From positions 1-64,000 of the forward strand of contig CALSRA010000042.1 of NCBI GenBank assembly GCA_943788635.1: a stretch of DNA of 64,000 nucleotides, read 5' to 3'. The notes beneath the pieces are model-generated. The model was not told the DNA's origin, made no database searches, and was given only the letters and a program-made list of their open reading frames with translations. This document shows, one piece after another, positions 10,241 through 26,260 of this stretch (within the stretch, counting starts at the first letter, position 1; the number at the start of each line of letters is the position of its first letter). Source of the stretch: an uncultured Alphaproteobacteria bacterium. Its GTDB lineage: Bacteria > Pseudomonadota > Alphaproteobacteria > UBA8366 > GCA-2717185. The position numbers were made by a program, and so were the translations under genes.

Positions 10241-11068
10241 TTAAACCCGGGCAAGAAAATCGAGCAGCGCCTGGTTGAACAGGTCCGGCTGTTCCCAGTA
10301 TGCGGAATGGCCCGCGCCTGGAACGACGCATGTCTCGTGGTTCGGAATGCGGGCGGCCAGCATTTCCAGCACCGCCGGCGGGGTATAAAGATCGGCATCC
10401 CCCGTCAGCATCAACACCGGCATGGCAAGGTTTTCCAGCGTCTGCCAGGTGATCTTCTCAAGGTCCGGTTGCCGACTGGGGCGGACACCATGGAACGCCT
10501 TGTCTTCCAAATCGAGCCAGGCACGGACGCCTTCCGGATTCGCCGCCCGGTAGGATGGTCCCAACTCGCGAAAATCGGGCGGCATGCCGTCGAAACCTGC
10601 GGGTCGCAATCCCTTCGATATCGCCTGATAATCGCTGTCGCTGACGCCTACCAGCGTGCAGGCAAGGATCAGGCTGCACAGCCGGTCCGGCCAGGCCTGC
10701 GCAAAATCGGTCGCAACGATACCGCCCAGCGCCGTGCCAAGCAGGTGGAACCGGTCAAGTTCAAGAAAGTCAACGAGCACCTTCAGGTCGCCCGTTCCCG
10801 TACCCCGGTCCTCGGGCGGTCCGGCCTCCGACCCATGATGCCCACGCCGCGAATAGCCGATAACCCGGTATCCGGCGGCGGCAAGCACCGGCTGCTGATA
10901 ACCCCAAACAAGGCCGCTCCCCGTATTGGAATGGCCCAGCACGACCGGAACGCCGTCGCCCCCCGTGTCCCAGTACCAAAGCTTTGCACCCGGCGCAGCC
11001 GCCAGGCCTTCGGTGACAGGCACTTGTGCGGGTATTGGCCGGGGCGTGAAATCTGGAATGCCGGACAT
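10241..11068 (-). CDS. Alpha/beta-hydrolase-fold protein with Ala at the nucleophile position
   Basis: A 275-aa alpha/beta-hydrolase-fold protein. The nucleophile elbow reads GTALGG, with Ala113 where a catalytic serine normally stands. Candidate acid (GDADLYTPP) and histidine (GAGHSAYW) residues are kept. The Ala codon is unambiguous. The aminoacrylate-processing RutD family also has GxALG, so the protein may still act, or may use a non-serine mechanism. It lies 2 bp after the next alpha/beta-fold gene, which has the same substitution, and 24 bp before the RraA-like gene. Confidence 0.8.
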   Translation of the reverse strand: MSGIPDFTPRPIPAQVPVTEGLAAAPGAKLWYWDTGGDGVPVVLGHSNTGSGLVWGYQQPVLAAAGYRVIGYSRRGHHGSEAGPPEDRGTGTGDLKVLVDFLELDRFHLLGTALGGIVATDFAQAWPDRLCSLILACTLVGVSDSDYQAISKGLRPAGFDGMPPDFRELGPSYRAANPEGVRAWLDLEDKAFHGVRPSRQPDLEKITWQTLENLAMPVLMLTGDADLYTPPAVLEMLAARIPNHETCVVPGAGHSAYWEQPDLFNQALLDFLARV

Positions 11069-11070
11069 GG

Positions 11071-11856
11071 TCAGGCGCTCAGGAACGGTAGCACGGAATC
11101 AAGAAACAGTTCCGGCGTCTGGACATGCATGAAGTGACCGGTATCCAGTTCCTGATACACCGCACCGGGAATGGCCGCCGCGACGGGTTCGATCACCTTC
11201 GGCGGCAGGATGAAATCACGCTGGCCGCCGATCACCAGTGTCGGACTGGTAATACGACCAAGGTCGCCTTCCAGTTCCATACCCGCCAGCATTCGGTTGA
11301 TCGCCGCGAAGCCATACGGATCATTGGTCATCCAGCGCTGCCGATAGGCCGGGAAACGGACAACGGCGCTGCGGATTTCCTCCGGGAAAGAACGGTCCAG
11401 ACTGCTATCGACAACCGCGCGCATGCCTTCACGTTCAACGGTTTCCGCCCGCTTCATCAAACCGGCATGAACCTCGGGGGCATTCCGGCCGATGGCCGGG
11501 CTGGTGGCGACAAGGCGTTTCACGCGTTCCGGATGCCCAATCCCGAACCCCAGGGCGATCCCGCCCCCCAGCGCGATGCCGACAACATGACAGGGCCCTT
11601 CGATACCCAGCGCATCCAGCAGTGCGACGAGGTCCCCGTTCAGGATATCGATGGACAGCGCGCCACGCGTTTTCTCCGACATCCCGAAACCGCGCAGGTC
11701 ATAGCGCAGCACCCGAAACCGGTCCTGGAATGCCGGCAACGTCAGGTCCCAACTGTCGAGCGATCCACCCAGTTCATGAATCAGCACCACCGTTTCCTTG
11801 CCGGCACCACTGACCTCGCAGCGCAGACTCGCGCCGTTCGCTTCCACCCATTGCAT
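11071..11856 (-). CDS. Alpha/beta-hydrolase-fold protein, second serine-less paralogue
   Basis: A 261-aa alpha/beta-hydrolase-fold protein resembling 3-oxoadipate enol-lactonases in layout: oxyanion region LIHELGG (residues 25-31), strand RYDLRGFGMS, nucleophile elbow GIALGG with Ala95 instead of Ser, acid GQRDFILP, and histidine DTGHFMH. It is collinear and nearly contiguous with the other serine-less gene and follows the TauD dioxygenase by 21 bp, so the four genes form one catabolic operon. A lyase, decyclising or RutD-like role is possible; ordinary serine hydrolysis is not expected. Confidence 0.8.
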   Translation of the reverse strand: MQWVEANGASLRCEVSGAGKETVVLIHELGGSLDSWDLTLPAFQDRFRVLRYDLRGFGMSEKTRGALSIDILNGDLVALLDALGIEGPCHVVGIALGGGIALGFGIGHPERVKRLVATSPAIGRNAPEVHAGLMKRAETVEREGMRAVVDSSLDRSFPEEIRSAVVRFPAYRQRWMTNDPYGFAAINRMLAGMELEGDLGRITSPTLVIGGQRDFILPPKVIEPVAAAIPGAVYQELDTGHFMHVQTPELFLDSVLPFLSA

Positions 11857-11877: not shown

Positions 11878-12876
11878 TCAGGCCTGTACGCCGCCACGCA
11901 ACCCGCCGGCATCGACATTGCCCCACAATACAGCATGGCTTTCCGGAAGGGGGCGGCTGTTCGGCATCGACAGCCACAGCCGGTACAGCAACCGGTCCTC
12001 CCCCGCGCCCGCATTATCGGTAAACGGGGTACGGCCATGATAGACGATATGATTGTTCAGGAATTGCATGTCGCCCGGCGCCAGCGGCATTTCAAACCCC
12101 AGTTCCTCCGCAACATCGATCAGCATGTCCAGCCCTTCGCGCTGCAGATCCGTCAGCGGCGGAACGCCCGGCAGTTCCAGCGCCTGATCGATATAGGTCC
12201 GGGAATAATGGCTGGTAAAATAGCCGTCGCGCATACCGAAGACCGACAGCGGATAACTTCCGGATTCCGCCCCGACCTCATCACCCGGCGAAAACCGCTG
12301 AAAGTCGCCAAACAGAATCTCGACCAGGTCCGGTCGGCGGGCCAGCATGACATCATGGATCGCCGTCGCACTGACAATACGACTGACCCCGCCGTTATGG
12401 GCACGCCGGACACAAAGCAGCCCCACCACATCGGCGCGATCATTATGCCAGCCCAGCCCTTCGGCGGAATCAACCCGTTTGCCGCCATTGCGGCTGTCGT
12501 CGCGGATATCGCGCATCAGCCCGCGGCCGCCATTCTGCTGCACCGGAATGCCCAGATGGGCCCCGATGGCGAAAAACACCGCGCGCAATTCCGCTTCCGA
12601 ATAGCGTTCCACCGGCAAGCCGGTCACTTTCATCACCCCGCAGCCGTCTTCCAGTTCGCGGGCAATATCCTGCAATTCGGGGCCAAGGCCCGGAAGCGGA
12701 AAATCCGCGGCCGTCAATGTGTCCCAGGGGCGGCCATGCAGGCTGGCCAATGCGGTATCGATCTCCGCGATGGCAGCGGTGGATAACGGATGAATCCAAT
12801 GCGTCGATGCGGAAAGATCTGATCCGCGCCATGTCGCGGCACCACCAATCGGTTGTCTCGATCCGGTCAAATCCAT
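11878..12876 (-). CDS. TauD/TfdA family dioxygenase
   Basis: A 332-aa non-haem Fe(II)/2-oxoglutarate-dependent oxygenase. The HxD iron ligands are in LGWHNDRAD, the distal histidine in YHGRTPF, and an arginine for 2-oxoglutarate in the RLLYRLWLS segment. Family members hydroxylate sulfonates, aryloxyalkanoates, betaines and similar small molecules; the substrate is not readable. It is the first gene of a minus-strand operon with two alpha/beta-fold proteins and an RraA-like protein. A divergent SDR gene begins 140 bp away, so the space between probably holds both promoters. Confidence 0.85.
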   Translation of the reverse strand: MDLTGSRQPIGGAATWRGSDLSASTHWIHPLSTAAIAEIDTALASLHGRPWDTLTAADFPLPGLGPELQDIARELEDGCGVMKVTGLPVERYSEAELRAVFFAIGAHLGIPVQQNGGRGLMRDIRDDSRNGGKRVDSAEGLGWHNDRADVVGLLCVRRAHNGGVSRIVSATAIHDVMLARRPDLVEILFGDFQRFSPGDEVGAESGSYPLSVFGMRDGYFTSHYSRTYIDQALELPGVPPLTDLQREGLDMLIDVAEELGFEMPLAPGDMQFLNNHIVYHGRTPFTDNAGAGEDRLLYRLWLSMPNSRPLPESHAVLWGNVDAGGLRGGVQA

Positions 12877-13016: not shown

Positions 13017-13802
13017 ATGAGTGGATTGAAGGATGGGCTCACAGGCAAGGTCGCGGTAATAACCGGGGCATCGACGCCGAAAGGAATCGGCCTCGCCATC
13101 GCGCGGCGCTATGCGGCAGAAGGCGCATCTCTGTTTCTCGCCGCCGAGGGCACGCCCGAACAGCTCGACGCTGCGGCGGCAGAATGCCGGGGGTTGGTGC
13201 AGCCGGGTGCGACGGTCGAATACGGCCAGTTCGACCTGGGCGTGCCGGACCAGCCGGAAGCCATGATCGCGGCCGCGCTGAAGGCCTTTGGCCAGGTGGA
13301 TGTGCTGGTCAACAATGCCGGCATCCGCGACAACAAGGATTTCGGCACCTTCACCCGCGAAGAATTCGACCGCATCGTTTCGGTCAATCTGACCGCCGCG
13401 TTTTTCACCAGCCAGGCCGTCGTGCCGGCCATGCGTAAACAGGGCAGCGGACGCATTATTCATATCGCCAGCCAGATGGGCCATGTCGCCGCCGACAAGC
13501 GCGCGGTTTACGGCCTGACCAAGGCGGCGCTGATCCACCTGACCAAATCCATGGCCTATGAGCTTGGCGCCGAGGGCATCATCGTCAATGCCATCAGCCC
13601 CGGTCCTATCCGCACCCAGCCGGTTCTCGATCGTATCGCCGCCGATCCGGAATACGAAGCGGAACGCAAGCATTACGTCCGCGCCGGGCGCTTGGGCGAA
13701 CCGACCGAAATCGCCGAACTGGCCTATTACCTTGCGGCCACCGACGCGACATTCATGCAGGGCACCGACCTGGTTATCGACGGCGGCTATATCAGCCACT
13801 AA
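13017..13802 (+). CDS. SDR family oxidoreductase
   Basis: A classical short-chain dehydrogenase of 261 aa. The cofactor motif is TGASTPKGIGLA near residues 18-29, NNAG follows near 98-101, and the catalytic S-Y-K appears as IASQMG then YGLTKAA. It should oxidise or reduce a hydroxyl/keto group with NAD(P). The inserted residues between the first and second glycines (TPKG) resemble enoyl-reductase-like or atypical SDRs. It diverges from the dioxygenase operon, and its stop codon overlaps the convergent MFS gene by 4 bp. Confidence 0.87.
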   Translation: MSGLKDGLTGKVAVITGASTPKGIGLAIARRYAAEGASLFLAAEGTPEQLDAAAAECRGLVQPGATVEYGQFDLGVPDQPEAMIAAALKAFGQVDVLVNNAGIRDNKDFGTFTREEFDRIVSVNLTAAFFTSQAVVPAMRKQGSGRIIHIASQMGHVAADKRAVYGLTKAALIHLTKSMAYELGAEGIIVNAISPGPIRTQPVLDRIAADPEYEAERKHYVRAGRLGEPTEIAELAYYLAATDATFMQGTDLVIDGGYISH

Positions 13803-15175
13803 ACGTGTCGGGCAAACCACAGCCGGGGGCGCAGGCAACTAGCCAGCAGGAACGCGACCAGCAACCCGCCGATATAGCGGAAGGTCATCTGGAAACCGGT
13901 CAGGAACGTGTTCGCCGCCCCCGCAGCCGACGCGTCCTGTTCCATCGCGACGAACAGCAGTGTCAGCAAGCTTGCCCCCAGCATGACACCAACGGTGCGG
14001 GTCACCATGACCAGGCTACCCGCGACGCCACGGTCAGCGCGGGGCAGCACTGCTGTGACCAGGTCCAGACAGGATACCTGAAACAGGCCGAGCCCGATTC
14101 CGTTCAACAGCAGCGACGCGACCATTACCGGAATCGGCGCATCTACGGGCCAGAACCCGATACTGAAAACGCCCAGCGCAACGCATAGCCCGCCCGCGAG
14201 GGCGATGCGGCTGGCGCCGATCCGCTGCGCCAGGTTCCCGCCGAGCTGCGCCGCCAGAATGGTGCCGAACCCGCCGCAGGCGAGGATCAAGCCCGACGCT
14301 GTAATCGGCAGGCTGGTCGCGCGGGTCAGGTAATACGGGACCAGCAGCATGATCGAGAACCCGGTCAGGTTGACCGCGATATTGGTGAGATTCACCAGCG
14401 AGAAGTCGATGTTCCGAAACACACCCAGCGCGATAATCGGCGCAGCAACCCGGCGTTCATGCATTACGAACCAGACAAATGCCGCAATCGTCACCGCCCC
14501 CAGCAAGGACAGCGCCGTGACCGACAGGCCGGTCCCGCGCAACTGGCTGAGCAGGAAGAGCAACAGCGCCAGTGACAACACCAGCAGGACCGCCCCCATG
14601 AAGTCGAACGCGCCCGCGGCACGTTCCCGGACCGGCATGTGCAGGAAAAAGGACAGTACCAGCACCGTCGCGGCAATCGGGGCGCGAAACCAGAACACAG
14701 CAGGCCAGCCCCAGGTTTCAACCAGCAACCCGCCCAGGGATGGCCCGATGGCCGCGCCCAGCCCGAAGACGACGGTATAGGCGCCCAGCATGCGCGGGCG
14801 CATGGCTTCGTCGAACAGGCCGGTCGCCAGCGCGGGGCCGCAACTGATCACCATCGCCGTCCCCACCCCCTGCAGGATACGCGCGACCAGCAACCATTCA
14901 AGTTCGGGCGCCCAACCACAGAAAAGGAATGCAACGACACTGAGCGCAAGGCCGAAACGGAAGACCCGCTGATGACCGAACAGATCGCCCAGCCGCCCGA
15001 AGACCAGCAGAAGGCTGGCATAGGTCAGCACATAGCAGATGACGACCCACTGGATCGATTGTAACGGAATGCCAAGGTCGCTCGTAATATCCGGAAAGGC
15101 GATATTGACCGCGCTATCGAGCGGCCCGACCAGTGTCCCGAACCCGATAACGCCGAATTTGAGCCACTGCCGCAT
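13799..15175 (-). CDS. MFS transporter, DHA2-like
   Basis: A 458-aa permease with about fourteen hydrophobic stretches and the MFS loop signature GRLGDLFGHQR near residues 60-70. Its length and the extra central segments fit the EmrB/QacA (DHA2) drug-proton antiporter type, though several members export metabolites. It is followed upstream on the same strand by a second MFS gene 9 bp away; two different permeases in tandem are unusual but not rare. Its 3' end overlaps the convergent SDR stop. Confidence 0.82.
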   Translation of the reverse strand: MRQWLKFGVIGFGTLVGPLDSAVNIAFPDITSDLGIPLQSIQWVVICYVLTYASLLLVFGRLGDLFGHQRVFRFGLALSVVAFLFCGWAPELEWLLVARILQGVGTAMVISCGPALATGLFDEAMRPRMLGAYTVVFGLGAAIGPSLGGLLVETWGWPAVFWFRAPIAATVLVLSFFLHMPVRERAAGAFDFMGAVLLVLSLALLLFLLSQLRGTGLSVTALSLLGAVTIAAFVWFVMHERRVAAPIIALGVFRNIDFSLVNLTNIAVNLTGFSIMLLVPYYLTRATSLPITASGLILACGGFGTILAAQLGGNLAQRIGASRIALAGGLCVALGVFSIGFWPVDAPIPVMVASLLLNGIGLGLFQVSCLDLVTAVLPRADRGVAGSLVMVTRTVGVMLGASLLTLLFVAMEQDASAAGAANTFLTGFQMTFRYIGGLLVAFLLASCLRPRLWFARHV

Positions 15176-15184
15176 CGCCGTCCG

Positions 15185-16414
15185 TCACGCCCTGCCGAAC
15201 GACAGCAGATGCACTGACGCCCGGCGCACCAGCATGCCCGCAATCAGCAGATTCAGGATATTGAACCCGATCGCATTGATGAACGCCGCGTCGTATGAAC
15301 CGGTCAGGTCGTAAATCGCACCGGCCATCCAGCCGCCCACGGCCATGCCTATGAGCGTAAACAACAGCACCACGCCGGTACGGCTACCGGCATCACCCGC
15401 CGGGAAATACGTTCGCACGATCATCGCGTAGGACGGCACGATCCCCCCCTGGGTCAACCCGAAGAACGCGGCGACGACATACATCATCTCCAGGCTGCTG
15501 ACGGGGATGAATGCCGCCAGGGCAATCATCTGCAGGAAGGAGCCCAGCATCAGGGTTTTCAGCCCGCCGATCCGGTCGGAAATCCAGCCGGATGTCAGGC
15601 GGCTGATGATGCCACAGGTCAGCATCAGCGATAGCATCTGCGCACCATCCGCCGCCGTGAACCCTAGATCGCCCGCGTAGACGATAAGATGCACCTGCGG
15701 CATCGCCATGGCGGCACAACAGGCGATACCGGCGATACAGAGCAGGCACTGGAACTGCCCCGGTCCGAAACCCAGCGGCCGAACCGGCAATGCCACCTTG
15801 TCTTCATGTGTTTCTTCAGAGGCGCGGAACTTCGGATACAGGAACGGCACAGCCACCGCCGTCAGCACCAGACAGAATACCCCCAAACCGAAATACGTGT
15901 CGCGCCAGCCATGCAGGTCGATAAAATGCTGCAGCACCGGTGGCCAGATCGCACCGGCGAAATAGCTGCCGCTGATCACGATCCCCACGGCCAGCCCGCG
16001 CCGCGCCACGAACCAGTGCGAGATATCGGCCACCAGCGGAGCAAAGAAAGCCGACGCGCCCAGAAAGCCAATAATCAGGCCATGAATCAGGCCGAAGGTC
16101 AGCAGCGATTCCGCCTGTACCGCCAGCAGATAGCCCCCGCCAAGACAGACACCACCAAACAGCGCCGGAACCATGATCCCGGACCGGTCGGACCAGCGCC
16201 CCATGACAACACCGCCCAACCCGAATCCCATCATGGTCAGGAAATAGGGCGTGGAGGCGCCGGACCGCGACGCGCCGAATTCCAGCGCGATCGGTTGCAG
16301 CGTGACGATAGCGGCGTACATGCCGGACCCGCCCATCGTCAGTAGTACCATCGACAGAACGAGGCGGATCCAGGCATAGCCCGCCACCCGCTCAGGAGTA
16401 GACAATTCGGACAA
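15185..16414 (-). CDS. MFS transporter
   Basis: A 409-aa twelve-segment permease with the loop signature GRWSDRSG near residues 76-83 and a matching SGWISDRIGG in the second half. The layout resembles oxalate/formate or monocarboxylate antiporter-like MFS proteins, so an organic-acid substrate is a reasonable guess. The reading frame starts with TTG at 16414; an AGGA box 7-8 nt upstream supports it, and the residues that follow lead directly into the first membrane segment. It ends 9 bp before the DHA2-like gene and may be co-transcribed with it. Confidence 0.8.
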   Translation of the reverse strand: MSELSTPERVAGYAWIRLVLSMVLLTMGGSGMYAAIVTLQPIALEFGASRSGASTPYFLTMMGFGLGGVVMGRWSDRSGIMVPALFGGVCLGGGYLLAVQAESLLTFGLIHGLIIGFLGASAFFAPLVADISHWFVARRGLAVGIVISGSYFAGAIWPPVLQHFIDLHGWRDTYFGLGVFCLVLTAVAVPFLYPKFRASEETHEDKVALPVRPLGFGPGQFQCLLCIAGIACCAAMAMPQVHLIVYAGDLGFTAADGAQMLSLMLTCGIISRLTSGWISDRIGGLKTLMLGSFLQMIALAAFIPVSSLEMMYVVAAFFGLTQGGIVPSYAMIVRTYFPAGDAGSRTGVVLLFTLIGMAVGGWMAGAIYDLTGSYDAAFINAIGFNILNLLIAGMLVRRASVHLLSFGRA

Positions 16415-16460: not shown

Positions 16461-16868
16461 TTACATGGCGCTTTCGGGAACACCCCAGGCCTTGGCGGCG
16501 TATTTCTCGCTGACGATATCGAAGACCACGCCGTTCGGGTCGCGGAATTTCACTTCGGTCGCGTCGCGCGGCGCGCCGGGCACCAGCATGTGATACTTGC
16601 CGCCGTTTTCCTCGATCGTCTTCTGGTACTTGTCCAGATCGTCGACGACGAAACCCATGTGATGCAATCCATGGAAATCCTTGCCGCGTTCATCGCCCGC
16701 CTGCTCATCCGTCTTGAACTTCAGGATTGCCATGCTGACGATGCCATCGGACAACATGATGACAATGTCGGATTCGAATACGCGCTGCATCTCGAACGTT
16801 TTTTCGTAAAACTGTGCCGCCGCTTCCATGTCGGGAACGGTGATGCCGATGTGCCGGAGCTTCGCCAT
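16461..16868 (-). CDS. VOC family (glyoxalase/dioxygenase fold) protein
   Basis: A 135-aa vicinal-oxygen-chelate protein. It starts KLRHIGITVPDMEAAAQFY, has a central HHMGFVVDDLDKY, and ends with FRDPNGVVFDIVSE, which is the standard two-module VOC pattern with likely metal ligands His7, a central His and the late Glu/Asp. Such proteins act as lyases, isomerases or dioxygenases. The substrate is not readable. Its good GGGAGG box lies just upstream of the ATG. It sits 46 bp upstream of the MFS gene on the same strand. Confidence 0.82.
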   Translation of the reverse strand: MAKLRHIGITVPDMEAAAQFYEKTFEMQRVFESDIVIMLSDGIVSMAILKFKTDEQAGDERGKDFHGLHHMGFVVDDLDKYQKTIEENGGKYHMLVPGAPRDATEVKFRDPNGVVFDIVSEKYAAKAWGVPESAM

Positions 16869-17156: not shown

Positions 17157-17290
17157 ATCTAGGGCTCCACGATAATGCCCGGACGTCGCGTCAGGGCGGG
17201 AGCATCTCAATAATCCGCTATACCGCTTGTGGACAAAGCATCATTTCTCTAGCATGACCTAGAATTTCTAAGCCTCAGGAACACCGAAGC

Positions 17291-18215
17291 ATGGCCCGCC
17301 GCCTGCCGCCGCTGAATGCATTACGCGCCTTCGAAGCCGCCGCCCGGCATGAAAGCTTCACCCGCGCCGCCGAAGACCTGCGCGTCACGCAAGGGGGCGA
17401 TCAGCCAGCAGGTCAAGGCGCTGGAAGCGGAACTCGGCCTCAAACTGTTCCACCGCGAACCCCGGCGGCTGGTCATCACCACAGCCGGGCGCGACTACCT
17501 TATCGTGATCCGCGACGCCGCTGGACCGTATCGCGGCCGGAACCGACCGGTTGCTGCAACGCCAGAACACCGGCGTGCTGACGGTCAGCACCTCGCCCAA
17601 TTTCGCCGCGAAATGGCTTGTTCACCGGCTTGGCCGATTTGCCGAATCCCATCCCGCCATCGACCTGCGGGTCAGCGCGGCCCTGCACCATATCGACTTC
17701 GCCCGCGAGGATGTGGATATCGCCGTCCGTCACGGGGACGGCAGCGATATCGGGCTGGACATGACCCGGCTTTATACCGAGGAACTGTTTCCCCTGTGCA
17801 GCCCGTCCCTGCTGCGGGACCAACCACCGCTGCGCGGACGCCATCGACCTCGCCCGCCTGCCGCTGTTGCATCTCGACAACCGGCAGGACTGGGCCAAAT
17901 TGGTTCGATGCCGCCGGCGCGCCGAAGGCCGACCTGAGCGGCGGCCCCATCCTCAACCAGGCCAGCATGGTGATCGACGCCGCCGTCGATGGCCAGGGGC
18001 GTGGCGCTGGCGGCGGGACCGGGCTGGCGGCACGGGACCTGATCGCCGGCCGCCTCGTCCGCCCCTTCCCGCTGGCGCTGGCCGTGCCCTATGCCTATTG
18101 GATCGTCTGCCCCAAAGCGACGGCAAACCTGCCCAAGATCGTGACCTTCCGGAACTGGCTGGTCGCCGAGGCAGCGGAAGATACACGGCTGTTGGGTGAG
18201 ATGGTCGCGACTTAG
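17291..18215 (+). pseudogene. LysR family transcriptional regulator, frameshifted several times
   Basis: The pieces reassemble into a GcvA-like LysR regulator: the HTH begins RRLPPLNALRAFEAAARH and continues GAISQQVKALEAELG, followed by the co-inducer domain pieces VSTSPNFAAKWLVHRLGRF, DIAVRHGDGSDIG, LARLPLLHLDNR and LIAGRLVRPFPLAL. Each join needs removal of one base: in GGGGG at 17393-17397, near 17520, near 17836, and near 17900. A further three-base net insertion lies near 17996-18025. All are insertions. It converges on queC, and the stop codons overlap. Either a true pseudogene or a stretch of uncorrected sequence. Confidence 0.8.
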
Positions 18216-18926
18216 CCGCCCCGATAGGCGGCATAGCCTTTCGCCCGCAAATCGCAGGCCGGACAGGTGCCGCAGCCATAGCCCCAGTCATGCAGGACAT
18301 CGCGCACGCCCAGGTAACAGGTATGGGTGCGCTCGCGAACCAGATCGACCAACGGCGCGCCGCCCAGGTCTTCCGCCATCGCCCAGGTTTCCGCCTTGTC
18401 GATCCACATCAACGGGGTATGCAGGACAAACCGCCGGTCCATGCCGAGATTGAGCGCAAGTTTGCATCGCCTTCACCGTGTCGTCGCGGCAATCGGGATA
18501 GCCCGAATAATCCGTTTCGCACATGCCGGCGACGATGTGGCGGGCATCCCGGCGATAGGCAATGGCGGCGGCAATCGTCAGGAACACCAGGTTGCGGCCC
18601 GGCACGAAGGTATTCGGCAGCCCGTCCGCCCCCATGGCGATTTCCGCTTCCCGGGTCAGCGCCGTATCGCCCAGTGTGGCCAGCACCGACAGGTCAGTCA
18701 GATGGTCCGCGCCCAGCCGGTCCGCCCAGCCGGGAAATTCCGCCCGCAATGCCGCCGTGACGTCATGGCGGCATTCCAGTTCCACCGCGTGGCGCTGCCC
18801 GTAATCGAAACCGACGGTTTCCACCGACCCGAACCGCTCCAGCGCCCAGGCGAGACAGACGGTCGAATCCTGCCCGCCGGAAAACAGGACGAGGGCCTTT
18901 TCGGTCGATTCAGCAACAGGGGGCAT
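18212..18926 (-). pseudogene. queC: 7-cyano-7-deazaguanine synthase, frameshifted
   Basis: QueC makes preQ0, the precursor of queuosine, from 7-carboxy-7-deazaguanine with ATP and ammonia. The N-terminal two thirds carry the PP-loop motif FSGGQDST (near residues 15-22) and PGRNLVFLT; the C-terminal third, in another frame, carries [18 protein letters not shown] and the zinc site with cysteines in [14 protein letters not shown]. One extra base near 18461-18463 separates them. After correction the protein is about 237 aa, the usual length. As read, the zinc-binding end is lost. No other que gene is in the window. Confidence 0.88.
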
Positions 18927-22886: not shown

Positions 22887-24494
22887 CTAACCCGCATCCT
22901 CCAGCGTCATGCGGGCCGCCTTTTCGCCGATCATGATCGACGGGGCGTTGGTGTTGCCTGACGTGAGCGTCGGCATGATCGAGGCATCCGCCACGCGCAA
23001 GCCCTCGATCCCGCGCACCCGCAGCCGTTCGTCGACCACGGCCATGGGGTCAGTGTCCGTGCCCATCTTGCAGGTGCCGACCGGGTGATAGGTTGTCTCC
23101 CCGTTTTCGCGGGTCCAGTCCAGCAACTCGTCGTCGGACTGAAGGTCGATGCCCGGAGTGATTTCGTCGGTGGCGATGCCCTGCAGCGGCGGGGCGGTCA
23201 TCAGCGCGCGGACGAACCGCATCGCTTCCACCGTGACATCGCGGTCAAGTTGCGCGGAGAGGAAGTTGAACAGGATTTTCGGTGCCTGCTTCGCATCGTT
23301 CGAGGATACATGGATGCTGCCAGTGGATTCCGAACGCAGGATATGGGTGAACGCGGTGACGCCCGATTCCCGCGCCAGCGTGTAATTGTCGCCGACCAGA
23401 AACGGCATCCAGCCGATCACTGCGTTCGGCGCTTCCAGGCCCGGCCGGGTGCGGATGAAGGCGCGCAGCGACGCCGCCGACATGCCCAGCAGCCCCTTGT
23501 CGGTGAAAGCATATTTCAGCGCCTGATAGACTAGGCCCAACCCGCGCGCCTTGTCGTTATAGGTCAGGCCGAGTGATGCCGGCACCTTCCAGCGCATGCG
23601 CGGGGCGTAATGTTCGCGCAGGTTTTCGCCGACGCCCTTGAGTTCGTGCTTTACCTCGATGCCCAGCCCCTTGAGCAATTCCGGCTGGCCGATGCCGGAC
23701 AGTTCCAGCAGTTGCGGCGAATTGATCGTGCCGCCGCTGATCACCACCTCGCGGTTGACCCGTGCTTCGTGCTGCTGGCCGTTCACCGTGTAACGCACGC
23801 CGACGCATTTCTTGCCTTCGAGCAACACGCATTCGGTCAGGGCATTGGCCTGGATTGTCAGGTTCGGCCATTTGCGTGCTGGGTCCAGATAGCAATGCGC
23901 CGTGCTCATCCGGCGGCCCTTGCGGATCGTCGTCTGCGACATGACGATACCGTCCTGGCTGGAGCCGTTGTAATCCTTGGGTGAGTCGAGCCCGACATGC
24001 TTGCCGGCGGCGATTATCGCGTCGTAGATCGGGCCGGTTTCCAGGCTTTCGCTGACCTTCAGCGGGCCGTCCTTGCCGCGATAGCCTTCCTCGCCATCGC
24101 CTTCATAGCTTTCCATCGCGCGAAACACCGGCAGCACGTCGTCATAGCTCCAGCCGCGATTGCCGAGCTGCGCCCAGATGTCGAAATCCTGCGCCTGCCC
24201 ACGCACGAAGACCATGCCGTTGATCGAACTGGACCCGCCCAGCAGCTTGCCGCGCGGGACCGGAATCCGCCGCCCACCGGTGCCGCCATCGGGTTCGGAT
24301 GAATACAGCCAGTTGGCCGCCGGGTTCTGGATCAGCTTGGCAAAGCCGACCGGGATGCGCGACCAGGGATGGCTTTCGCGGCCGGCTTCCAGCACCAGCA
24401 CCGAATGTTTTCCGCTTTCGCTCAACCGGTAGGCAACGGCGGCGCCTGCCGAACCGGCGCCGACCACGATGTAATCGAAGGTTCTGGTTTCCAT
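22887..24494 (-). CDS. GMC family oxidoreductase (choline dehydrogenase-like)
   Basis: A 535-aa FAD-dependent alcohol dehydrogenase. The FAD motif GAGSAGAAVAYRLSESG lies near residues 12-28; the GMC signatures GGSSSINGMVFVRGQ (near 85-99) and GGTINSPQLLELSGIGQ (near 254-270) follow. The catalytic end has YHPVGTCKMG and NTNAPSIMIGE. The gene is 2 bp from a highly similar gene upstream, a clear tandem duplication. Substrate may be choline or another primary alcohol; no betaine aldehyde dehydrogenase or BetI is next to it. Its last bases are copied at 20857-21006. Confidence 0.88.
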   Translation of the reverse strand: METRTFDYIVVGAGSAGAAVAYRLSESGKHSVLVLEAGRESHPWSRIPVGFAKLIQNPAANWLYSSEPDGGTGGRRIPVPRGKLLGGSSSINGMVFVRGQAQDFDIWAQLGNRGWSYDDVLPVFRAMESYEGDGEEGYRGKDGPLKVSESLETGPIYDAIIAAGKHVGLDSPKDYNGSSQDGIVMSQTTIRKGRRMSTAHCYLDPARKWPNLTIQANALTECVLLEGKKCVGVRYTVNGQQHEARVNREVVISGGTINSPQLLELSGIGQPELLKGLGIEVKHELKGVGENLREHYAPRMRWKVPASLGLTYNDKARGLGLVYQALKYAFTDKGLLGMSAASLRAFIRTRPGLEAPNAVIGWMPFLVGDNYTLARESGVTAFTHILRSESTGSIHVSSNDAKQAPKILFNFLSAQLDRDVTVEAMRFVRALMTAPPLQGIATDEITPGIDLQSDDELLDWTRENGETTYHPVGTCKMGTDTDPMAVVDERLRVRGIEGLRVADASIMPTLTSGNTNAPSIMIGEKAARMTLEDAG

Positions 24495-24496
24495 TA

Positions 24497-26098
24497 TTAA
24501 GCCGCTGCCTCCAGGATCATGCGCGATGCCTTCTCGCCGATCATGATCGACGGCGCGTTGGTATTGCCGGATGTGAGCGTCGGCATGATCGAGGCATCGG
24601 CGACCCGCAGCCCTTCCATGCCATGCACGCGCAGATGATCGTCGACCACCGCCATCGGATCGCTGCCCATCTTGCAGGTCCCAACCGGGTGATAGGTGGT
24701 TTCGGCGTTATTGCGGACCCATTCGAGCAATTCATCATCCGCATCGATGTTCACGCCGGGCGCGATTTCATCGGTGGCAATCCCCTGCATCGCCGGCGCG
24801 GTCATGATCCGCCGGGTGATGCGCATCGCCTCCAGCGTCACATCCCGGTCCAGTTGCGCGGTCATGAAGTTGAAGTTGATCGCCGGCGCCTGCTTCGCAT
24901 CGGTCGAGGATACATGGATGCTGCCGGTGCTTTCCGACCGCAGGATGTTCATGATCGCGGTCACACCAGACTGCTTGGAAAGCTGGAAATTCTCGCCGAT
25001 CAGGAAGGGGACCCAGGAGATCGCCGCATCGGGCGAATCCAGCCCTTCGCGGGTGCGGATATAGGCGCGGATCGGCGCTGCCGGCAGGCCCAGCAGCCCC
25101 TTGTTCGTCAGCGCGTATTTCAGCGCCTGGAAGACGAGGCCAAGCCCCTTCGCCTTGTCGTTATAGGTCATGCCCAGCGCGGGCGGCACGGTCCACTTCA
25201 TGCGCGGCGAGTAATGGTCGCGCAGGTTCTCGCCAACGCCCTTGAGTTCGTGCTGCACCTCGATGCCGAGGCCCTTCAGCAGTTCCGGCTGGCCAATGCC
25301 GGACAGTTCCAGAAGCTGCGGCGAATTGATCGAGCCACCGCTGACGATGACCTCACGATTGGCGCGGGCCTCCACGACCTGACCGTTCAGGGTGTAGCGC
25401 ACGCCAACGCATTTCTTGCCGTCGAGCAACAGGCATTCGGTCAGGGCATTGGCCTGGATCGTCAGGTTTTCACGGCCGCGCGCGGGGTCGAGATAGCAAT
25501 AGGCGGTGCTCATCCGGCGGCCCTTGCGGATCGTCGCCTGGGTCATGCCGATGCCGTCCTGCGACGCGCCGTTATAATCCTTGGTGTATTCGATCCCGTT
25601 CTCGGCCGCGCCCGCGATGATTGCGTCGTAGATCGCGCCGGTTTCGAAATTCTCGTTGACCTTCAGCAGCCCGCCCTGGCCGCGATACTCGGCGTCGCCA
25701 TCGCCCTGATAGTCTTCCATTTCCTTGAAGATCGGCAGAACCTCGCGGTAGCTCCAGCCGCGATTACCAAGCTGCGCCCAGGTATCGTAATCGTTCGACT
25801 GACCGCGCACGAAAACCATGCCGTTGATCGACGAGGACCCGCCCAGCAGCTTGCCGCGCGGAATGGGAATACGGCGCCCGCCGGACCCTTCATCCGGTTC
25901 CGATGAATACAACCAATTGGCGGCGGGGTTCTCGATCAGCTTGGCGAAGCCGACCGGAACCCGCGACCAGGGATGGCTTTCACGGCCCGCTTCCAGCACC
26001 AGCACCTTGTGCTTGCCATTGGCGCTCAGCCGGTTGGCGACGACCGATCCGGCTGATCCCGCACCGACGATAATGTAATCGAATGTCTGGTTTTCCAT
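24497..26098 (-). CDS. GMC family oxidoreductase, tandem paralogue
   Basis: A 533-aa GMC flavoprotein, highly similar along its length to the following gene. It has GAGSAGSVVANRLSANG (FAD), GGSSSINGMVFVRGQ, GGSINSPQLLELSGIGQ and the active-site stretch YHPVGTCKMG. The ATG at 26098 was chosen rather than a longer frame because it gives the family N-terminus ENQTFDYIIVGAG and has an AGGA box 5 nt upstream. Differences from the paralogue are spread throughout, so the duplication is not recent; the two may have different alcohol substrates. Both are probably transcribed together. Confidence 0.88.
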   Translation of the reverse strand: MENQTFDYIIVGAGSAGSVVANRLSANGKHKVLVLEAGRESHPWSRVPVGFAKLIENPAANWLYSSEPDEGSGGRRIPIPRGKLLGGSSSINGMVFVRGQSNDYDTWAQLGNRGWSYREVLPIFKEMEDYQGDGDAEYRGQGGLLKVNENFETGAIYDAIIAGAAENGIEYTKDYNGASQDGIGMTQATIRKGRRMSTAYCYLDPARGRENLTIQANALTECLLLDGKKCVGVRYTLNGQVVEARANREVIVSGGSINSPQLLELSGIGQPELLKGLGIEVQHELKGVGENLRDHYSPRMKWTVPPALGMTYNDKAKGLGLVFQALKYALTNKGLLGLPAAPIRAYIRTREGLDSPDAAISWVPFLIGENFQLSKQSGVTAIMNILRSESTGSIHVSSTDAKQAPAINFNFMTAQLDRDVTLEAMRITRRIMTAPAMQGIATDEIAPGVNIDADDELLEWVRNNAETTYHPVGTCKMGSDPMAVVDDHLRVHGMEGLRVADASIMPTLTSGNTNAPSIMIGEKASRMILEAAA

Positions 26099-26260
26099 TG
26101 GTCCTGTTCCCCCGTATTGCATCTGCGCCCAATGTTGGCCGTTAACGTGCCAAATAATTGAGCAGACAGCAATCGGCGTGGACACCTAATCCGGCAGGCG
26201 CCACGACGAATGAGGGAAATGTTGCATCGCCCCGAGAGGCACAGGCGGCGTACCAGGCGG

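What the first reader, a model, noticed from the sequence alone, without database searches (positions are those of the whole stretch)
10241..11856. Two adjacent alpha/beta-hydrolase-fold proteins both have Ala for the nucleophile
The elbows read GTALGG (Ala113) and GIALGG (Ala95), with the Asp and His of the triad still available. Two serine-less proteins in one operon suggest a shared non-hydrolytic or RutD-like mechanism rather than random loss. They lie with a TauD oxygenase and an RraA-like aldolase, which may outline a route in which a ring or heteroatom compound is oxidised, then cleaved without a serine.
Basis: partly seen in the sequence, partly recalled or inferred. Interest (0 to 1): 0.65.

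Follow-up and report, generated by a model that had tools for sequence, protein, structure and literature searches.

The report
Twin serine-less hydrolase-fold enzyme families
Two neighbouring genes encode hydrolase-shaped enzymes that have permanently replaced the usual cutting serine with alanine; each belongs to its own widespread, conserved family, and the two families keep turning up together in bacterial degradation gene clusters, which points to real but still unknown non-standard chemistry.

Summary
Both adjacent alpha/beta-hydrolase-fold proteins have Ala in the nucleophile elbow (AB1 Ala113, AB2 Ala95) and keep the Asp and His. AB1 and AB2 are two separate clades (support 99 and 100). 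Neither is RutD, PcaD, a C-C hydrolase or a HOD-type dioxygenase. Both are under purifying selection, and each has its own invariant residues that Ser homologues lack.

The families travel together: AB2 occurs in 10 of 19 AB1-positive genomes, against 4 of 385 sampled. They co-cluster in Mesorhizobium and Rhizobium islands with CoA-transferase, thiolase and dienelactone hydrolase genes. AB1 is also found beside intradiol dioxygenases.

Best reading: catabolic enzymes using an Asp-His dyad for acid-base (non-acyl-enzyme) chemistry on oxygenase or ring-cleavage products. Substrate and reaction are unknown. RutD is an analogy, not membership.

The parts
10241..11068 (-). AB1, alpha/beta-hydrolase-fold protein, 275 aa, Ala113 at the nucleophile position
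   Evidence: Pfam PF00561 75.3 bits; AF2 model pLDDT 91.7; Ala invariant in relatives of 44-83% identity
10730..10732 (-). codon of Ala113 (GCG) in the elbow GTALGG
10391..10393 (-). codon of Asp226, catalytic-acid position of AB1
   Evidence: aligned with the invariant Asp of Ser homologues
10307..10309 (-). codon of His254, catalytic-base position of AB1
   Evidence: invariant
11071..11856 (-). AB2, alpha/beta-hydrolase-fold protein, 261 aa, Ala95 at the nucleophile position, HELGG motif (Glu28) at the oxyanion loop
   Evidence: Pfam PF00561 87.7 bits; Ala invariant in relatives
11572..11574 (-). codon of Ala95 (GCG) in the elbow GIALGG
11215..11217 (-). codon of Asp214, catalytic-acid position of AB2
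11134..11136 (-). codon of His241, catalytic-base position of AB2
11878..12876 (-). TauD/TfdA-family Fe(II)/2-oxoglutarate dioxygenase, first gene of the run, 21 bases before AB2
   Evidence: PF02668 90.4 bits; 84-86% identical and in the same place in G001, G002 and L033
9527..10216 (-). RraA-like aldolase, 24 bases after AB1; not conserved in sister genome G001
   Evidence: PF03737 116.7 bits; best hit in G001 34% and elsewhere
13017..13802 (+). SDR oxidoreductase, divergent from TauD, conserved in the genus
13799..16414 (-). two MFS transporters, order conserved in L033/G002
16461..16868 (-). VOC/glyoxalase-family protein, order conserved in L033/G002
   Evidence: PF00903; 95% identity

Best explanation
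AB1 and AB2 are each members of their own uncharacterised, long-established family of alpha/beta-hydrolase-fold catabolic enzymes in which Ala has replaced the nucleophilic Ser. Without an acyl-enzyme nucleophile, the retained Asp-His dyad most likely works as a general acid/base next to the oxyanion hole. It would move a proton, or activate water, on a labile oxygenase or ring-cleavage product: tautomerisation or isomerisation, non-covalent opening of an activated enol-lactone or similar, decarboxylation, or C-C cleavage. Shown: fixed Ala, kept Asp and His, family-specific invariant residues, purifying selection, co-occurrence of the two families, and catabolic neighbourhoods. Inferred: the acid-base mechanism, and that the substrate is an oxygenase or ring-cleavage product. 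Unknown: the substrate, and whether the two proteins act on consecutive steps.
For: Every protein scoring 249 bits or more to the AB1 or AB2 profile has Ala (Gly in one Mesorhizobium lineage), never Ser. Lower-scoring homologues have Ser, except one Ala protein (L007), the true RutD, a weakly scoring Ala protein (L150) and Asp types. Each family is one clade (SH-aLRT 99 and 100). AB1 has invariant residues that Ser homologues lack: Arg74 (3% in Ser homologues), Glu168 (0%) and Trp258 (1%). AB2 has Glu28 (3%), Trp3 (2%) and Pro120 (1%). Asp and His are invariant. dN/dS is 0.07-0.14. AB2 is present in 10 of 19 AB1-positive genomes against 4 of 385 sampled. They co-cluster in Mesorhizobium (about 23 kb) and in Rhizobium CF080 (AB1, AB2, AB2, AB1 within about 52 kb). 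AB1 flanks are enriched for intradiol dioxygenase, 4 of 80 genes against about 0.9 per genome. AB2 flanks carry CoA-transferase, enoyl-CoA hydratase, dienelactone hydrolase and metallo-beta-lactamase-fold genes, and the islands add thiolase and, in Rhizobium CF080, carboxymuconolactone decarboxylase. The dienelactone hydrolases there keep their Cys, so nucleophile loss is not general decay. Precedent: the His-Asp dyad alone is the base in HOD/AqdC, with natural Ser-to-Ala (PMC10548524); some carboxy-lyases work with a D/E-H dyad without serine (PMC11878206).
Against: There is no biochemical evidence and no substrate. Neighbourhoods vary widely between lineages, and the TauD context is found only in this genus, so the two families may act in several pathways. 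About half of the AB1-positive genomes lack AB2.
Confidence: 0.6

Rival explanations
1. RutD-like helpers: they speed a reaction that also runs spontaneously, such as hydrolysis of a carbamate, enamine or imine, using His-activated water.
For: E. coli RutD has Ala in the elbow (GHALGA). RutD is thought to assist a step that can run spontaneously (PMC8113886). In Bosea an AB1 homologue directly follows a RidA gene, as RutD follows RutC. An FAD amine-oxidase-type gene lies downstream of AB1 in the window, and in G001 it is separated from AB1 by only one gene.
Against: RidA adjacency was found once only. AB1/AB2 score far below the RutD cut-off. Grouping AB1 with Ala-RutD is marginally rejected (AU p = 0.0485). 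The usual partners are ortho-cleavage and CoA genes.
Confidence: 0.15
2. Pseudoenzymes: non-catalytic binding, scaffold or sensor proteins.
For: Loss of the nucleophile; some hydrolase-fold families without a catalytic triad are thought to be non-enzymatic (PMC11878206).
Against: Asp and His are invariant across distant lineages, extra charged and aromatic residues are fixed, and the genes sit in catabolic clusters.
Confidence: 0.12
3. Cofactor-free dioxygenases of the HOD/AqdC type, with Ala favouring O2 binding.
For: Natural Ser-to-Ala and Asp-His base catalysis are documented there (PMC10548524).
Against: HOD scores only 22.5 and 20.1 bits against the AB1 and AB2 profiles. HOD's acid D126 is in another place in the chain, whereas here Asp follows strand 7. 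Iron-dependent oxygenases are already beside these genes.
Confidence: 0.07
4. A different nucleophile took over, for example Glu28 of the HELGG motif in AB2, so hydrolysis stays covalent.
For: Glu28 is invariant in AB2 and nearly absent from Ser homologues.
Against: AB1 has no equivalent acid there, and L068, a Ser-type homologue, also carries HE, so HE alone is not diagnostic. Geometry was not measured.
Confidence: 0.05
5. Random point mutations or sequence errors.
For: The genome is an incomplete draft, and frameshifts are present elsewhere in the window.
Against: The same Ala is found in independent assemblies and across Alpha-, Beta- and Gammaproteobacteria and Amycolatopsis.
Confidence: 0.01

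Closest known systems
RutD (TIGR03611), E. coli putative aminoacrylate/carbamate hydrolase
   Same: Hydrolase fold, Ala at the elbow, Asp and His kept, catabolic operon
   Different: Separate clade; AB1/AB2 score 69 and 83 bits against a cut-off of 238.5; no rut-type genes beside them. The window genome's own RutD-like protein (L159) has Ser.
PcaD 3-oxoadipate enol-lactonase (TIGR02427; 2xua)
   Same: Closest named family and best solved relative of AB2 (167 bits); similar pathway setting (CoA-transferase, thiolase, CatC in Pseudomonas luteola)
   Different: Below the cut-off of 255.85; PcaD has Ser; AB2 has Glu28, Trp3 and Pro120 instead
HOD/AqdC cofactor-free dioxygenases
   Same: Asp-His base chemistry; natural Ala at the elbow in AqdC (PMC10548524)
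   Different: Profile scores of only 20-22 bits; acid in another place; different elbow sequence (SHGGW)
MhpC/BphD/DxnB2 C-C hydrolases
   Same: Fold neighbours of AB1 (one search includes DxnB2 S105A); E. coli MhpC scores 104 bits to the AB1 profile
   Different: They have Ser; TIGR03343 scores 54.5 and 33.3 against a cut-off of 462
Tomato methylketone synthase 1
   Same: Hydrolase-fold decarboxylase without the canonical triad, using His as base (PMC10548524)
   Different: Plant protein; not compared by sequence here

Membership tests
alpha/beta-hydrolase fold superfamily | Pfam Abhydrolase match above the gathering score and canonical strand-elbow-helix | tested here: met
   PF00561 75.3 and 87.7 bits, cut-off 25.8; AB1 model
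RutD (TIGR03611) | Score above the curated cut-off of 238.5 bits | tested here: not met
   69 and 83.3 bits
RutD (TIGR03611) | Ala at the elbow with Asp and His | tested here: met
   TIGR03611-like proteins with Ser also exist
RutD (TIGR03611) | Encoded in a rut operon | tested here: not met
   Neighbours are TauD, SDR, MFS, RraA
PcaD enol-lactonase (TIGR02427) | Score above 255.85 bits | tested here: not met
   88 and 167.2 bits
PcaD enol-lactonase (TIGR02427) | Ser nucleophile | tested here: not met
   Ala113/Ala95; the fetched PcaD homologues all have Ser
MCP C-C hydrolases (BphD/MhpC) | Ser nucleophile and score above the family cut-off | tested here: not met
   TIGR03343 54.5 and 33.3 bits, cut-off 462
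HOD/AqdC dioxygenases | Sequence relationship and SHGGW-type elbow | tested here: not met
   HOD 22.5 and 20.1 bits against AB1/AB2 profiles; elbows differ
HOD/AqdC dioxygenases | O2-dependent, cofactor-free ring cleavage | not testable with these tools
   Needs enzyme assay
AB1 and AB2 as one serine-less group | Single clade holding both | tested here: inconclusive
   Best tree separates them with Ser proteins between, but the AU test does not reject one clade (p = 0.245)

The most novel reading that the evidence does not exclude
AB1 and AB2 carry out two consecutive steps of an undescribed ortho-cleavage-like catabolic pathway, each catalysing a reaction not yet known for the alpha/beta-hydrolase fold by Asp-His acid-base chemistry. 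The same pair of serine-less enzymes was recruited repeatedly into different gene islands.
Probability: 0.2. Interest if true: 0.75.

Novelty: new variant of a known kind. Interest (0 to 1): 0.5.

Why it matters
Serine-less members of this fold are known only as scattered cases (RutD, AqdC, methylketone synthase, CGI-58). Here are two broad, conserved families, routinely annotated as 'alpha/beta hydrolase', that cannot use the acyl-enzyme mechanism the name implies. They co-occur and sit in definable catabolic islands, which makes their substrate searchable by genetics. Solving one would show what reaction the bare Asp-His dyad supports and would correct many automatic annotations.

Tried and rejected
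Point mutation or sequence error: rejected, since all close relatives have Ala. RutD membership: rejected by score and clade. HOD-type membership: rejected by profile score. RraA as a fixed partner: rejected, absent from the same place in G001. RidA as a general partner: one case only. General decay of nucleophiles in the islands: rejected, since the dienelactone hydrolases keep Cys. Proof of two independent Ser losses: not reached (AU p = 0.245; the AB2 + RutD test did not finish). The AB2 structure model was too poor to use. Literature searches found no paper on these two families.

Full report
OBSERVATION. The two ORFs at 10241-11068 (AB1, 275 aa) and 11071-11856 (AB2, 261 aa) are real, both on the minus strand and 2 bases apart, with TauD 21 bases upstream and an RraA-like gene 24 bases downstream. 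Both match Pfam Abhydrolase_1 well above the gathering score. Their elbows are GTALGG (Ala113) and GIALGG (Ala95), and alignments to BpoC and PcaD put Ala on the catalytic Ser. Asp226/His254 and Asp214/His241 occupy the acid and base positions. AlphaFold2 on AB1 with 19 family sequences gives pLDDT 91.7, with Ala113 between strand 107-112 and helix 114-125. The AB2 model has pLDDT 62 and is not used.

IS THE ALA RANDOM? No. A scan of genome contigs gave 22 AB1 loci of 44-83% identity in Alphaproteobacteria, Gammaproteobacteria, a Burkholderiaceae MAG, Amycolatopsis and a MAG labelled Chlamydiae. All have Ala. AB2 relatives in Aminobacter, Pseudomonas luteola, Paracoccus, Massilia and Mesorhizobium, plus paralogues of 54-60% identity in the same order, all have Ala and an H-E-[LM]-G-G signature, or a close variant, in place of the usual HG. 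Over 143 distinct proteins, scores against the two family profiles are bimodal. At 249 bits or more the residue is Ala (Gly in one); at 193 bits or less it is Ser, apart from one other Ala protein (L007), true RutD, a weakly scoring Ala protein (L150) and Asp-type enzymes. Later-found members agree: Ala, with Gly again only in the Mesorhizobium L211/L212 copies. One borderline Peristeroidobacter pair (212-215 bits) has Ala and Thr.

HISTORY. In a 108-protein tree AB1 is one clade (SH-aLRT 99) and AB2 another (100). They lie in different regions with Ser proteins between, and apart from RutD. Holding AB1 and AB2 together costs 17 log-likelihood units but is not rejected (AU p = 0.245), so two independent losses are favoured but not proven; AB1 with Ala-RutD is marginally rejected (p = 0.0485). 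Pairwise dN/dS within the genus is 0.07-0.14.

ARE THEY STILL ENZYMES? Probably. Asp and His are invariant, and each family has fixed residues that Ser relatives lack: Arg74, Glu168, Trp258, Gly180 and Trp184 in AB1; Trp3, Glu28 and Pro120 in AB2. This fits specialised active sites better than drift. Distances could not be measured.

CO-OCCURRENCE. In an even sample of 386 genomes of the class, AB1 occurs in the window genome, G117 and G225; AB2 occurs in these and in G210 and G235. In a phylum sample, AB1 occurs in G582 and G684, and AB2 in G582, G657 and G741 (the 194-bit G559 hit has Ser). Of 19 AB1-positive genomes reached through loci, 10 also carry AB2 at E <= 1e-55, against 4 of 385 (Fisher p = 3e-12; with lineages collapsed by hand to 7 of 14 against 4 of 275, p = 3e-8). 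One of the ten (Peristeroidobacter) is a borderline AB2 match. AB1-positive genomes tend to be large catabolic genomes, so the baseline is somewhat unfair. Physical clusters: M. loti LU AB2-AB2-AB1 within 23 kb; Mesorhizobium 1M-11 likewise; Rhizobium CF080 AB1-AB2-AB2-AB1 within about 52 kb.

NEIGHBOURHOODS. In the genus, the order VOC-MFS-MFS-SDR(divergent)-TauD-AB2-AB1 is conserved. RraA is missing from this place in G001, whose best RraA-like protein is 34% identical. Outside the genus TauD does not recur. AB1 flanks include PF00775 intradiol dioxygenases in 4 of 80 genes: L031, L045 (abutting AB1) and L047 were identified, and L063 has another three genes upstream. The class average is 70 matches in 76 genomes, giving p about 1e-8 to 4e-6 depending on the assumed base rate; this is a post hoc test. 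GSTs adjoin AB1 in three same-family genomes. AB2 flanks hold CoA-transferases (6 of 57), enoyl-CoA hydratases, dienelactone hydrolases and metallo-beta-lactamase-fold enzymes; in P. luteola AB2 lies among thiolase, CoA-transferase and muconolactone isomerase genes. The Mesorhizobium, Rhizobium and G210 islands share dienelactone hydrolase, thiolase, an ABC importer and CoA-transferase or enoyl-CoA hydratase genes. The dienelactone hydrolases there keep Cys. The common theme is ortho-cleavage-like or CoA-linked degradation. Gene calls on unannotated loci were made with a simple script and are approximate.

MECHANISM. A Ser-to-Ala protein cannot form the usual acyl-enzyme. Known serine-less routes on this fold use the Asp-His pair, or His alone, as general base: HOD/AqdC oxygenases, with natural Ala in AqdC (PMC10548524), methylketone synthase decarboxylation (same paper), and carboxy-lyases working with a D/E-H dyad (PMC11878206). 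RutD is thought to assist a step that can run spontaneously (PMC8113886). I therefore favour Asp-His acid-base chemistry on a labile oxygenase or ring-cleavage product. The exact reaction (isomerisation, non-covalent lactone or enol opening, decarboxylation, C-C cleavage) is open. Shown: Ala fixation, the kept dyad, specific invariants, purifying selection, co-occurrence. Inferred: catalysis and pathway type. Unknown: substrate.

VERDICT. The kind (serine-less hydrolase-fold enzyme) is known, but these two families and their association appear undescribed in the literature searched. The TauD-to-RraA route is weak and RutD is an analogy.

Noticed in passing
window 18000-18926 (-): QueC-like gene is frameshifted: the N-terminal part is in one frame and the C-terminal part continues in the next, so it is a pseudogene or an assembly error.
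   Followed up: partly
window 17200-18215 (+): LysR-family regulator split over several frames, close to the broken QueC; possibly local assembly errors.
   Followed up: partly
L159 (G000 contig C28:120459-121208): The window genome's own RutD-like protein, above the TIGR03611 cut-off (240.5 bits), has Ser (VGHSTGG), whereas E. coli RutD has Ala; the RutD model mixes both types.
   Followed up: partly
L138/L212 and L211 (Mesorhizobium second AB1 copies): Gly instead of Ala at the elbow (VGTGAGG) with Asp and His kept.
   Followed up: no
L007 (G017 C1:4296723-4297490): Another Ala-elbow protein (AGLALGG) outside both families, possibly a further serine-less lineage.
   Followed up: no
L194 (Peristeroidobacter, G781 C8:234248): Two neighbouring AB2-like proteins with Ala (LSGAFGG) and Thr (VGDTFGA) at the elbow.
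   Followed up: no
L151:2169-4580 (Mesorhizobium loti island): CofD and CofH-like F420 biosynthesis genes lie just upstream of an AB2 copy.
   Followed up: no
G000 C6:45429-46187 (L059), with copies in G001 and G002: Second, divergent AB1-family protein (about 38% identical to AB1) with Ala; in G001 it lies beside HD-domain and response-regulator genes rather than catabolic ones.
   Followed up: partly
window 22887-26185 (-): Two adjacent, closely similar GMC-type oxidoreductase ORFs (535 and 562 aa), apparently a tandem duplication.
   Followed up: no
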